A stretch of 64,000 nucleotides of DNA from Roseateles aquatilis (GTDB lineage: Bacteria; Pseudomonadota; Gammaproteobacteria; Burkholderiales; Burkholderiaceae_C), in assembly GCF_002205645.1 (NCBI RefSeq), contig NZ_NIOF01000004.1, positions 1-64,000 on the forward strand, in the 5' to 3' direction. Both the position numbers and the translations under genes were made by a program. The notes under the pieces are model-generated. The model was given only the letters and a program-made list of their open reading frames with translations, was not told the DNA's origin and ran no database searches. The first letter of the stretch is position 1. The number at the start of each line of letters is the position of its first letter. This document shows positions 212 through 28,779 of this stretch, piece after piece.

Positions 212-1345
212 TCACGTCGACGTCGGCGCTGTGGACGCTCCACCAGGCGGCTTGATCGGCGGCGTTTCCGGTGTTGACGGGCCATCATGCGCGGGATGCG
301 CCGCCGACGCCGCGCGCGCCTTGAGCGCGGGCCGGTAGTACTCGTCGAGGAAGCGCTGCCGGTCGTCCCGGTAGGACGCCACCGCGCCCAGGCGATGCAG
401 CAGCCGGATGTAGAGCCAGGCGCAATCCAGCTGATGCCACAGGAAGCCCGAACGGGCGCTGCTCGGGAACAGGTGATGGTTGTTGTGCCATTCACCGCCG
501 AACACGCCGGGCCGCCATTGATTGACGGACATGTCGCGCCGATTGAAGTCCACGCCGTCGCGACGCAGGTCCCGGCCGCGTCCGTGCCCCTGGTAGTTGA
601 AGGTGCGCACCCCCACCGACCACAGCAGCACGCCGCTGAACAGCGCCAACGCCAGCGCATGGCCGCCGATCGCGTAGTACACCGCGTACCAGAACGTCCA
701 GCTCAGCACGCCATGCGCGATCAGCGCCGCCGGGTGGCTGACCGAGCCCCAGCGCTGGTACTGGCGATAGCTGTTCAGATGAATGCCGGTATGCGCCAGC
801 ATCTTCACGGTCCGCGCATAGTCGTCCTCGGACAGGTCGTGCGCGATGGGCTGGTGGTTGATGTCCGCGAGGAAGCAGTAAAGGAAGCCCGCCGATGCGT
901 TGTACGGATCGCCCGGCTGGTCCGACTTGACGTGATGCACCTGGTGCGAGACGACATAGATCTCCTCGGGCACGACTTTGGGCACTAGGTTCTGCGTCAC
1001 GAAGCGCCACGCGCCGTGGCGGAACGCGAAGGCCCGATGCGTGCAGTAGCGGTGATACCAGATCGTGCCGTGCGTGCTCATGCCGCCGACGCCGAACAGC
1101 AACGCCAGCGCCAGCAGGCCGCCGCTGAAGTGGTACTTCACGAACAGCACCGGCGCCGGCAGCAGGCACAGCACCCAGACCCAGGCGATCACGCAGATCC
1201 AGTTCTTGCGCGTCCGCAGCACGTTGCATCGCGCCAGCGCCTCGCGGAGGATCTGCCGTGGCGTGGGGCGGACAAGCCCGCCCGCGGCATCGACCCAGCC
1301 ATAGCTCGGCGCGCGCAAAACCCTGTCGATGAATGCCATCTTCAT
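212..1345 (-). CDS. Membrane fatty acid desaturase (acyl-CoA/acyl-lipid delta-9 type)
   Basis: Integral membrane di-iron desaturase of about 377 residues that should insert a double bond into an acyl chain held as a thioester or lipid. The three histidine clusters of the family are visible: HRYCTH after the first membrane segments, HQVHH, and HNNHH near the C-terminus. Hydrophobic stretches such as WVLCLLPAPVLF and LLALALLFGVGG are the membrane segments. The tail is Pro/Ala-rich and probably disordered. The start (ATG, MKMAFIDR) overlaps the stop of the upstream NRPS gene by 4 nt (ATGA), so it is translationally coupled and last in the leftward NRPS operon. This suggests it desaturates the acyl part of the product. 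The substrate (ACP-, CoA- or lipid-bound) cannot be told from sequence. Confidence 0.9.
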   Translation of the reverse strand: MKMAFIDRVLRAPSYGWVDAAGGLVRPTPRQILREALARCNVLRTRKNWICVIAWVWVLCLLPAPVLFVKYHFSGGLLALALLFGVGGMSTHGTIWYHRYCTHRAFAFRHGAWRFVTQNLVPKVVPEEIYVVSHQVHHVKSDQPGDPYNASAGFLYCFLADINHQPIAHDLSEDDYARTVKMLAHTGIHLNSYRQYQRWGSVSHPAALIAHGVLSWTFWYAVYYAIGGHALALALFSGVLLWSVGVRTFNYQGHGRGRDLRRDGVDFNRRDMSVNQWRPGVFGGEWHNNHHLFPSSARSGFLWHQLDCAWLYIRLLHRLGAVASYRDDRQRFLDEYYRPALKARAASAAHPAHDGPSTPETPPIKPPGGASTAPTST

Positions 1346-27921: not shown

Positions 27922-28779
27922 TCACGACGTCGGCAGGCCGTCGACGCCGGGGCTCATCGCCGGCGAAGGGGTCGTCGACGACTCCGGAGCGGCCGGTGGC
28001 GCCGCGGCGAAATCGGCGGCCACCCGGGACAGGATGTCCCCCAGCCGCTGGCGAAGGAAATGGTGGCCCTCCGGATACTCGATGTGCCGGAAGGGCCCGC
28101 TGCAGACGCGCTGCCATTCGGCCACCCGGGCGAACGGCGCCACGTCGTCATGCGTGCCGCTCATCACGGTGACGCTCATGTCCAGCGTGCCGCCGAAGCT
28201 GCTTTGCTCGGCCAATGCCAGGTCCGCCCGTATCGTCGGCATGGCGCGCGACATGAACTCCGCATTGGCCAGGATCTCGGGTGGCGTGGCGTCGCTCAGC
28301 GCGAGCAACCCGCACAGCGCCGCGTCGTCCAGCGCCGACCAGCCGCGATCGCGCCAGCCGCGATCCAGCGCGATGGCGGACAGATAGAGACGATCCACCG
28401 CGATGCCGCGATGCTTCAGTTCATCGGCCAGGAACGCGCACACCAGCCCGCCGAGGCTGTGCCCGAAGAGCGCGCACCGCCCCGATGCCAAGGTGGGGGC
28501 CAGGTCATCCGCCATCGCCGTCACCAGCGCGCGCATGTCCCGCCGAGGCGCCGCATCCCGCCAGGTGCCGCGCCCCGGCAGTTCGACCGGGCACAGGACG
28601 ATCCCCCGGGCTTGCGCCGCCCGCATCCAGGGACGGAACAGCGCCGCGCTGCCGCCGGCATGGGGAAGACAGAACAACCGCGGCCGGCCATTCATGCCCG
28701 ATTCATTCGCGCCCGAATCGGTCCAGGGCAGCCAGCGACTGGCTTCGATTCGGGGAGGAATGGAAAGAAAGACGGTCAT
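27922..28779 (-). CDS. Type II thioesterase (GrsT/RifR type)
   Basis: About 285 residues. FCLPHAGGSAALFRPW and GHSLGG (Ser about 108) are signatures of editing thioesterases of NRPS/PKS systems, with a C-terminal His in EGHHFL. These enzymes clear misacylated carriers or release products. It is transcribed leftward ahead of the LtaS-like gene. The start MTVFLSIPP has GGGA about 7 nt upstream. The internal Met at residue 29 (MNGRPRLFCL) would give a protein closer to the usual 250 residues and cannot be excluded. The C-terminal 30 residues are Pro/Ser-rich. Confidence 0.88.
   Translation of the reverse strand: MTVFLSIPPRIEASRWLPWTDSGANESGMNGRPRLFCLPHAGGSAALFRPWMRAAQARGIVLCPVELPGRGTWRDAAPRRDMRALVTAMADDLAPTLASGRCALFGHSLGGLVCAFLADELKHRGIAVDRLYLSAIALDRGWRDRGWSALDDAALCGLLALSDATPPEILANAEFMSRAMPTIRADLALAEQSSFGGTLDMSVTVMSGTHDDVAPFARVAEWQRVCSGPFRHIEYPEGHHFLRQRLGDILSRVAADFAAAPPAAPESSTTPSPAMSPGVDGLPTS

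What the first reader, a model, noticed from the sequence alone, without database searches (positions are those of the whole stretch)
212..28779. Unrecognised hybrid FkbH/NRPS/type II acyl-chain locus with its own export line
One contiguous region combines glyceryl loading (FkbH-T-C), one C-A-T NRPS module with MbtH, an acyl-AMP ligase with ACP, KAS II- and KAS III-like enzymes, a KR-ACP protein, a MupA/Atu3671-type monooxygenase, two unlike desaturases, two thioesterases and dedicated transporters. I know each family but not this combination. It predicts a small glyceryl-aminoacyl conjugate of a desaturated fatty chain.
Basis: partly seen in the sequence, partly recalled or inferred. Interest (0 to 1): 0.85.

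Follow-up and report, generated by a model that had tools for sequence, protein, structure and literature searches.

The report
Hydroxy-lipid cassette joined to glyceryl-peptide genes
An unnamed proteobacterium carries a gene cluster that seems to build an oxidised fatty chain with a small glycerate-amino-acid part; its core of five enzymes recurs, in the same order, in distant actinobacteria whose product is unknown to us.

Summary
The locus is modular. Five genes (membrane desaturase/hydroxylase g09, KAS III g10, MupA/PuwE-family monooxygenase g11, KR-ACP g12, KAS II g08) recur in one order in 5 of 5 actinomycete loci with a close KAS III (S. clavuligerus pSCL4, Streptosporangium, Virgisporangium, Herbidospora, Actinokineospora), with no FkbH, NRPS or FAAL relative found beside them. 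In the window the core shares a probable operon with a FAAL-ACP pair and an ABC-FtsX-LolA-barrel export line, which is co-linear in 17 of 17 fetched order-mate loci without the core. MupA alpha-hydroxylates a beta-ketoacyl-ACP, so I read the core as a discrete alpha-hydroxylation synthase making 2,3-dihydroxyacyl chains (inferred). The leftward operon should make glyceryl-aminoacyl: the C domain after FkbH has HHVVTDG, that of C-A-T reads HRLVADE. FAAL plus FkbH in NRPS lines is known (vioprolide); foxicin joins a ketide, an amino acid and an FkbH unit. One joint product is likely, not shown. New variant of a known kind; the core is the interesting part.

The parts
212..1345 (-). g01 fatty-acid desaturase superfamily protein (PF00487)
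   Evidence: DesA-family NF049918 only 42.6 bits, far under its cut-off 400
1342..4731 (-). g02 NRPS C*-A-T; C motif is HRLVADE instead of HHxxxDG
2726..2811 (.). perfect hexanucleotide array inside the g02 A domain (Asp-Thr repeats just before the A3 motif)
   Evidence: protein sequence
4728..4907 (-). g03 MbtH-like protein
4997..6826 (-). g04 ABC exporter (permease+ATPase), nearest TIGR02204 723.7 bits, under its cut-off 780.4
6870..10418 (-). g05 FkbH-T-C; HAD motif DCDDT, C motif HHVVTDG
10412..11278 (-). g06 small protein with weak nucleotidyltransferase (PF01909) hit; start may be 11047; role unknown
   Evidence: no PDB or plasmid match; model unusable
11511..12404 (+). g07 thioesterase (frame open from 11271)
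12378..13622 (-). g08 KAS II, member of the five-gene core
   Evidence: 59-63% identical to its counterparts in five actinomycete loci
13820..14719 (+). g09 membrane desaturase/hydroxylase (PF00487), member of the core (frame open from 13784)
14753..15856 (+). g10 KAS III, member of the core; Cys132/His280/Asn310 invariant in 6 of 6
15906..16982 (+). g11 MupA/Atu3671-family luciferase-like monooxygenase, member of the core; nearest solved relative PuwE 6KET
16979..18781 (+). g12 ketoreductase-ACP, member of the core; Lys355/Ser378/Tyr392/Asn396 and ACP Ser549 invariant in 6 of 6
18778..20466 (+). g13 fatty acyl-AMP ligase
20463..20792 (+). g14 free-standing ACP
20802..21542 (+). g15 ABC ATPase of LolD/MacB type
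21539..22945 (+). g16 FtsX/LolC-type permease
22977..23729 (+). g17 LolA-like periplasmic carrier (PF17131)
23726..25015 (+). g18 probable outer-membrane beta-barrel (no Pfam; signal peptide-like start, aromatic C-terminus in it and 12 of 12 called homologues)
25130..26044 (+). g19 SDR oxidoreductase
26019..27869 (-). g20 protein with five hydrophobic segments and a sulfatase-fold domain; sulfatase or LtaS/EptA-like phosphotransferase, undecided
27922..28842 (-). g21 thioesterase (start 28626-28842)

Best explanation
A hybrid biosynthetic cluster assembled from three modules. (1) Acyl arm: a conserved five-gene core (g08-g12) works as a discrete, type II-like alpha-hydroxylation ketide synthase. 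KAS III primes and KAS II extends a chain with malonyl units on the KR-ACP protein; the MupA/PuwE-family oxygenase hydroxylates the alpha carbon of the beta-ketoacyl-ACP; the KR reduces the ketone, giving a 2,3-dihydroxyacyl thioester; g09 further oxidises the chain. In this genome a FAAL-ACP pair (g13, g14) feeds it a fatty acid. (2) Polar arm: FkbH loads glycerate from 1,3-bisphosphoglycerate on the T domain of g05, whose intact C domain joins it to the amino acid activated by g02 (whose own C domain has lost its motif). (3) The two arms are joined (ester or amide; which enzyme is unknown), released by a thioesterase, and exported through the ABC-FtsX-LolA-barrel line. Shown: gene content, order and spacing, conservation and modularity, active-site residues. 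Inferred: operons, every chemical step, the join of the two arms, the product.
For: Core g09-g10-g11-g12-g08 in the same order in 5 of 5 loci with a close KAS III, at 45-69% protein identity to the window; families, spanning four actinomycete orders as I recall them. The six KAS III form one clade, 100/100 support. Active-site residues invariant in 6 of 6. LLM function: MupA needs only an FMN reductase, ACP and a beta-keto substrate (PMC10953402, abstract, introduction and conclusion); the nearest solved relative is PuwE, E 1e-91, whose oxygenase is assigned, by bioinformatics, to a 3-amino-2-hydroxyacyl chain (PMC4219810, passages). Core, FAAL-ACP and export line lie on one strand with 4-base overlaps at five junctions. 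Polar arm: HHVVTDG in g05, HRLVADE in g02; an unnamed order-mate has C-FkbH-T-C-A in one protein (L092); FkbH loading of glycerate in NRPS lines, and FAAL with FkbH in vioprolide (PMC8949500, passages). Joint locus: core gene g08 lies on the leftward strand between g07 and g09; of the one gene tested from each half, KR-ACP has no match in 15 of 15 sister genomes and FkbH has one, at 33%, in 1 of 15; the three 1-29 kb segments share a raised GATTCA/TGAATC density, 5.4-6.4 per 10 kb against 1.0-4.5 in seven host stretches (hexamer chosen after I had noticed it).
Against: No second genome was found with the two operons together. The core lives without FkbH/NRPS/FAAL relatives in all five loci. 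No working C domain is left to join acyl and polar arms. LLMs of PKS lines also do Baeyer-Villiger chemistry (PMC8739492, passages), so chain cleavage is possible. The composition evidence is small: 29-40 kb, outside the cluster, also has 4.55 per 10 kb, and the tetranucleotide correlation of 1-29 kb with the host (0.79-0.81) meets the host range (0.80-0.91) and the value of the 64-84 kb NRPS stretch (0.79). Chain length, rounds of extension and amino acid are unpredicted: a pocket code read by eye against recalled positions gave no paper. The A domain carries a perfect Asp-Thr repeat insert and could be impaired.
Confidence: 0.45

Rival explanations
1. Two neighbouring but independent pathways: the leftward operon makes a small glyceryl-aminoacyl product exported by g04, the rightward operon makes a hydroxylated acyl lipid exported by g15-g18.
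For: Parts of each half occur without the other elsewhere; two transporters and two thioesterases are present; no C domain seems free to join them.
Against: g07 and g08 interleave the two; the one gene tested from each half is absent or only 33% alike in 15 sister genomes; similar compositional deviation (weak); FAAL and FkbH work in one line in vioprolide.
Confidence: 0.25
2. The rightward operon makes an outer-membrane or envelope lipid, not a secreted natural product: Lol-like export, a sulfatase-fold membrane enzyme (g20) and an extra Lgt gene (g22) next door; in actinomycetes the same core sits with FA_hydroxylase and PAP2_3 proteins.
For: FA_hydroxylase and PAP2_3 beside the core in 5 of 5 actinomycete loci (Pfam on three and two of them; the rest by similarity); MMPL and SDRs in 3 of 5; Lgt gene in 3 of 5, a second copy elsewhere in two of these genomes (the S. 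clavuligerus chromosome was not searched); second Lgt beside the window cluster; LolA-like carrier and barrel.
Against: g22 is 33% identical to the strain's own Lgt and no closer to the actinomycete ones; no FA_hydroxylase or PAP2 homologue in the window or the ten further stretches searched except pSCL4; g20 matches sulfatases better than LtaS; NRPS/MbtH genes alongside.
Confidence: 0.18
3. Tetronate-type chemistry: FkbH-made glyceryl thioester and the KAS III (FabH-like) close a tetronate ring on a beta-ketoacyl chain.
For: Tetronate operons pair FkbH, an ACP and a FabH-like protein (PMC7489565, passages); both families are here.
Against: The KAS III has five close relatives in loci without an FkbH relative; the Agg4/Agg5-type acyltransferase and dehydratase do not show in the Pfam annotation; FkbH is fused to T-C, not free.
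Confidence: 0.06

Closest known systems
Vioprolide / cystomanamide assembly lines (FkbH in an NRPS; FAAL too in vioprolide)
   Same: FkbH-loaded glycerate in an NRPS; in vioprolide also a FAAL-loaded fatty acid (PMC8949500, passages)
   Different: There an ester-forming C domain links fatty acid and glycerate and a longer NRPS follows; here FkbH is N-terminal, there is one A domain, and the chain is worked on by discrete KAS/LLM/KR enzymes
Foxicin cluster (PKS + C + FkbH, separate A domain, PCP-TE)
   Same: Ketide chain, one amino acid and an FkbH unit proposed to be joined (PMC5318452, passages)
   Different: Modular type I PKS makes the chain; order is C-FkbH; the passages seen name no LLM, FAAL or KAS III
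Mupirocin alpha-hydroxylation bimodule (MupA) and puwainaphycin PuwE oxygenase
   Same: Same monooxygenase family working with KR and ACP (MupA) or a PKS module (PuwE); beta-keto substrate for MupA
   Different: Those sit in modular synthases; here KAS III, KAS II, LLM and KR-ACP are small separate proteins, and KAS II keeps its catalytic Cys motif
Tetronate glycerate-utilisation operon
   Same: FkbH plus FabH-like enzyme plus ACP
   Different: Other operon genes not seen; KAS III belongs to a clade found without FkbH
LolCDE/MacB-type exporters with LolA-like carrier
   Same: LolD-like ATPase, FtsX permease, LolA-like protein
   Different: A dedicated barrel g18; found free-standing in order-mates and beside PKS genes in P. 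ginsengisoli

Membership tests
Vioprolide-type acyl-glycerate lipopeptide line | FAAL with carrier protein | tested here: met
   g13, g14
Vioprolide-type acyl-glycerate lipopeptide line | FkbH domain loading a T domain, followed by C and A-T | tested here: met
   g05 FkbH-T-C then g02 A-T; split over two proteins
Vioprolide-type acyl-glycerate lipopeptide line | ester-bond-forming C domain before FkbH | tested here: not met
   no C domain before FkbH in g05; the only other C domain in the locus (g02) has HRLVADE
Vioprolide-type acyl-glycerate lipopeptide line | several NRPS modules downstream | tested here: not met
   one A domain of amino-acid type within 212-28842; the next C domains on the contig lie beyond 66 kb, past siderophore-type genes
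MupA-type alpha-hydroxylation | TIGR04020 monooxygenase above cut-off | tested here: met
   415.8 bits, cut-off 244.45
MupA-type alpha-hydroxylation | partner KR and ACP with intact active sites | tested here: met
   invariant in 6 of 6
MupA-type alpha-hydroxylation | oxidation of beta-keto-ACP at the alpha carbon | not testable with these tools
   needs in vitro assay
Tetronate glycerate-utilisation operon | FkbH-like protein and FabH-like protein | tested here: met
   g05, g10
Tetronate glycerate-utilisation operon | Agg4-like acyltransferase and Agg5-like dehydratase | tested here: not met
   no such domain in the Pfam annotation of g01-g21; not needed by every tetronate (recalled)
LolCDE/MacB-type exporter | LolD-like ATPase, FtsX permease, LolA-like carrier | tested here: met
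LolCDE/MacB-type exporter | substrate exported | not testable with these tools
   needs mutant
Terminal-alkyne FAAL-desaturase-ACP cassette (jamaicamide type) | desaturase that acts on acyl-ACP to make an alkyne | not tested
   FAAL and ACP present, but neither desaturase was compared with Jam enzymes; one search gave only weak matches for a low-confidence model

The most novel reading that the evidence does not exclude
The five-gene core is an undescribed class of acyl synthase: a free-standing, type II-like alpha-hydroxylation ketide synthase, shared by this Burkholderiales-type genome and rare actinomycetes, that makes a polyhydroxylated chain. In actinomycetes the product is further hydroxylated (FA_hydroxylase) and gets or loses a phospho-head group (PAP2_3), a sphingolipid-like logic without a serine palmitoyltransferase in the loci seen; in this genome it was wired to FAAL, glyceryl-NRPS and an outer-membrane export line.
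Probability: 0.3. Interest if true: 0.75.

Novelty: new variant of a known kind. Interest (0 to 1): 0.52.

Why it matters
It offers a small, five-protein system for alpha-hydroxylation of acyl chains outside large modular synthases such as those of mupirocin and puwainaphycin, and a cross-phylum gene signature for finding the product. S. clavuligerus, a well-studied industrial strain (recalled), carries the core on its megaplasmid, so the chemistry can be tested in a tractable organism.

Tried and rejected
Tried without result: single-protein scan of genome contigs with KR-ACP (29 pattern matches, no relative); PDB sequence searches of g06 and g09 (none); plasmid search with g06 (none); structure models of g09 (mean pLDDT 58.1) and g06 (38.8), with weak fold matches for g09 (0 at E 0.001; best 5.7e-3; third an AlkB alkane monooxygenase); A-domain code search in papers (0 papers). 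Literature: 0 papers hold FkbH with luciferase-like monooxygenase, ketoacyl and desaturase; 3 hold at least three of FkbH, glyceryl, condensation domain, Burkholder (I read passages of two, PMC8949500 and PMC5318452, not of PMC12304814); 0 hold S. clavuligerus with pSCL4 and fatty acid desaturase; 0 hold four of five LolA/FtsX/polyketide terms; 87 hold LLM terms, 25 were listed, passages of one read.

Rejected or left open: a settled name for g20 (its best matches are sulfatases: choline-sulfatase E 1.9e-14 against LtaS 1.5e-7; a Thr in place of the Cys/Ser-x-Pro-x-Arg nucleophile shows only in a 2.5-bit, non-significant aligned piece, so the phosphotransferase reading is weak); Lgt g22 as a sure part of the cluster; a shared intergenic motif as proof of co-regulation (short repeats only); chance as the cause of the core's synteny.

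Counts to hold against me: three distant KAS III loci (L022, L024, L025) end 0-1.1 kb after the gene, so absence of the core there rests on the upstream side. Of 20 other genomes with the g16 permease I fetched 17, one copy each; two of these loci are under 14 kb. Of nine other genomes with the FkbH fragment I fetched four. The exact 8-residue patterns (RAGDTNPE, IGHTTSPH) miss diverged cores, and the genome search scored only a few candidates a genome. For pSCL4 only +-18 kb was looked at, for the other four about +-30 kb, the outer 20 kb by called genes only. No close KAS III in 388 other family genomes (three had 38-40% ones, no other core gene) or in 393 other genomes of G417's class.
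Full report
What is there. The window is bases 1-64000 of a 480,262-base contig (C42) of a 6.39 Mb genome in 48 contigs. Its G+C is 0.67-0.74 in 2 kb steps. A simple gene finder and Pfam/NCBIfam place 21 genes at 212-28842. A leftward gene row g06-g01 runs nucleotidyltransferase-like / FkbH-T-C / ABC / MbtH / C-A-T / desaturase, with overlaps at 10412-10418, 4728-4731 and 1342-1345. A rightward row g09-g19 runs desaturase-hydroxylase / KAS III / LLM / KR-ACP / FAAL / ACP / ABC ATPase / FtsX permease / LolA-like / barrel / SDR, with 4-base overlaps at five junctions if the starts are right (16979, 18778, 20463, 21539, 23726). 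Between them lie g07 (thioesterase, +) and g08 (KAS II, -). g21 and g20 (thioesterase; sulfatase-fold membrane protein) close the cluster on the minus strand.

The five-gene core. tblastn of KR-ACP against 72,556 plasmids gave S. clavuligerus pSCL4 (three records of that species) at 46% over 94%, 391 bits; the best other listed hit has 104 bits. That locus holds g09 (58%), g10 (64%), g11 (61%), g12 (48%) and g08 (67% with a short form, 59% full length) in that order on one strand. A two-row KAS III alignment scanned over 84,980 species genomes gave 8 relatives: four close ones (61-68%) in Streptosporangium saharense, Virgisporangium aurantiacum, Herbidospora mongoliensis and Actinokineospora auranticolor, all with the same five genes in the same order, and four distant ones (37-41%) without them. 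tblastn within +-10 kb and called genes within about +-30 kb (+-18 kb for pSCL4) show no FkbH, FAAL or whole-NRPS relative beside the core; the hits to left-row genes are ABC ATPases and one 449-residue AMP-ligase in Herbidospora, 31% to the A domain of g02. All five loci add an FA_hydroxylase (PF04116) and a PAP2_3 protein just downstream; three add MMPL and SDR genes, three an Lgt gene. The six KAS III form a clade with 100/100 support on a long stem; the window as sister to the five has 93/92, below the tool's strict mark, with long branches flagged. Catalytic residues of KAS III, KR and ACP are invariant in 6 of 6 (their roles recalled); KAS II shows SACASG, NAHGTGT and TGHALG in the two sequences printed. 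The core is rare: no KR-ACP match in 15 sister genomes; among 398 other genomes of the order five hits at 31-34% in open frames of 1727-2562 residues, which I read as PKS ketoreductases; no close KAS III in 388 others of the family or 393 others of G417's class.

What the core does. The monooxygenase is the best clue. MupA, namesake of the family, needs an ACP-bound beta-keto substrate and an FMN reductase and puts a hydroxyl on the alpha carbon (PMC10953402, abstract, introduction, conclusion). The nearest solved relative is PuwE (6KET, E 1e-91); its oxygenase is assigned by bioinformatics, with an aminotransferase, to a 3-amino-2-hydroxyacyl chain (PMC4219810, passages). Other LLMs in PKS lines are assigned alpha-hydroxylation or Baeyer-Villiger chemistry (PMC8739492, passages), so chain cleavage is not excluded. 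With two condensing enzymes, a KR and an ACP beside it, the simplest reading is a discrete alpha-hydroxylation synthase that ends in a 2,3-dihydroxyacyl thioester. No dehydratase domain shows in the cluster; g19, an SDR, also matches PF13561 (enoyl-ACP reductase-like), so an enoylreductase is not excluded. g09 has histidine boxes HESSHGH-like, HLxHH and HAEHH; whether it desaturates or hydroxylates is open.

The polar arm. FkbH domains in NRPS lines load glycerate from 1,3-bisphosphoglycerate and stand in place of A domains (PMC8949500, passages). In g05 the HAD motif DCDDT and the C motif HHVVTDG are intact; in g02 the C motif is HRLVADE, and mutation of this motif is given as the reason X domains are inactive (same paper). 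So I expect the C of g05 to join glycerate to the g02 amino acid. An unnamed order-mate holds C-FkbH-T-C-A in one protein (L092; FkbH placed there by similarity). Foxicin is a further known case of ketide, amino acid and FkbH unit (PMC5318452, passages). The A-domain pocket was read by eye only and is not assigned. A perfect (TCGGTG)14 array adds an Asp-Thr tract before the A3 motif.

The export line. The g16 permease has relatives in 20 other genomes of 388 searched (own excluded). In 17 of 17 loci fetched, g15-g18 are co-linear and no core, FAAL, FkbH or NRPS gene of the window matches at E 1e-8. A LytTR-type regulator family occurs in 8 and a histidine-kinase family in 6 of the 18 loci compared (annotated in L059 only). 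In Paraburkholderia ginsengisoli the same four genes follow KS/KR/DH and P450-KR proteins. So it is an independent module, seen twice beside acyl-chain genes. It and 12 of 12 called g18 homologues end in an aromatic residue, as outer-membrane barrels do.

One locus or two. For one: interleaving of g07/g08, sister genomes lacking the one gene tested from each half (KR-ACP 0 of 15; FkbH 1 of 15 at 33%), and a shared raised GATTCA density (weak, hexamer chosen afterwards). Against: separate occurrence of the parts elsewhere and no obvious joining enzyme. I put 0.45 on one product, 0.25 on two pathways, 0.18 on an envelope lipid, 0.06 on a tetronate.

Novelty. FAAL+FkbH+NRPS is known. The combination with a discrete KAS III/KAS II/LLM/KR-ACP core and this export line was in none of the papers found, but MIBiG could not be searched. 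The finding is a new variant of a known kind; the conserved core is worth more than the cluster.

Noticed in passing
window 52794-63453 and contig C42 64-94 kb (L094, L095): A separate lipopeptide-siderophore-like cluster: ABC ATPase protein, penicillin amidase, GNAT acetyltransferase, Lys/Orn N-oxygenase, TonB receptor, then NRPS genes and one with a FAAL-like region.
   Followed up: partly
window 29164-29952: Second Lgt (prolipoprotein diacylglyceryl transferase) gene, 33% identical to the strain's other copy; Lgt genes also sit near the core in 3 of 5 actinomycete loci.
   Followed up: partly
window 2726-2811, 8685-8737, 54766-54902, 56364-56439: Near-perfect hexanucleotide arrays, three of the four inside genes (NRPS A domain, FkbH-T linker, penicillin amidase); length changes by whole units would keep frame.
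   Followed up: no
L016 2728-19603 (Paraburkholderia ginsengisoli plasmid): KS/KR/DH and P450-KR proteins followed by the same ABC-FtsX-LolA-barrel line, a 4'-phosphopantetheinyl transferase and, further on, a lipase with its chaperone.
   Followed up: partly
L022, L023, L024, L025: Distant KAS III (37-41%) next to an unknown 241-261 aa protein, with an upstream 727-740 aa protein in three of four loci (MMPL in L022, the only one checked), in gammaproteobacteria.
   Followed up: partly
window 31407-35261: Glyoxylate carboligase / hydroxypyruvate isomerase / reductase-like set beside the cluster, a possible glycerate link, but the same set lies in Sinorhizobium plasmids.
   Followed up: no
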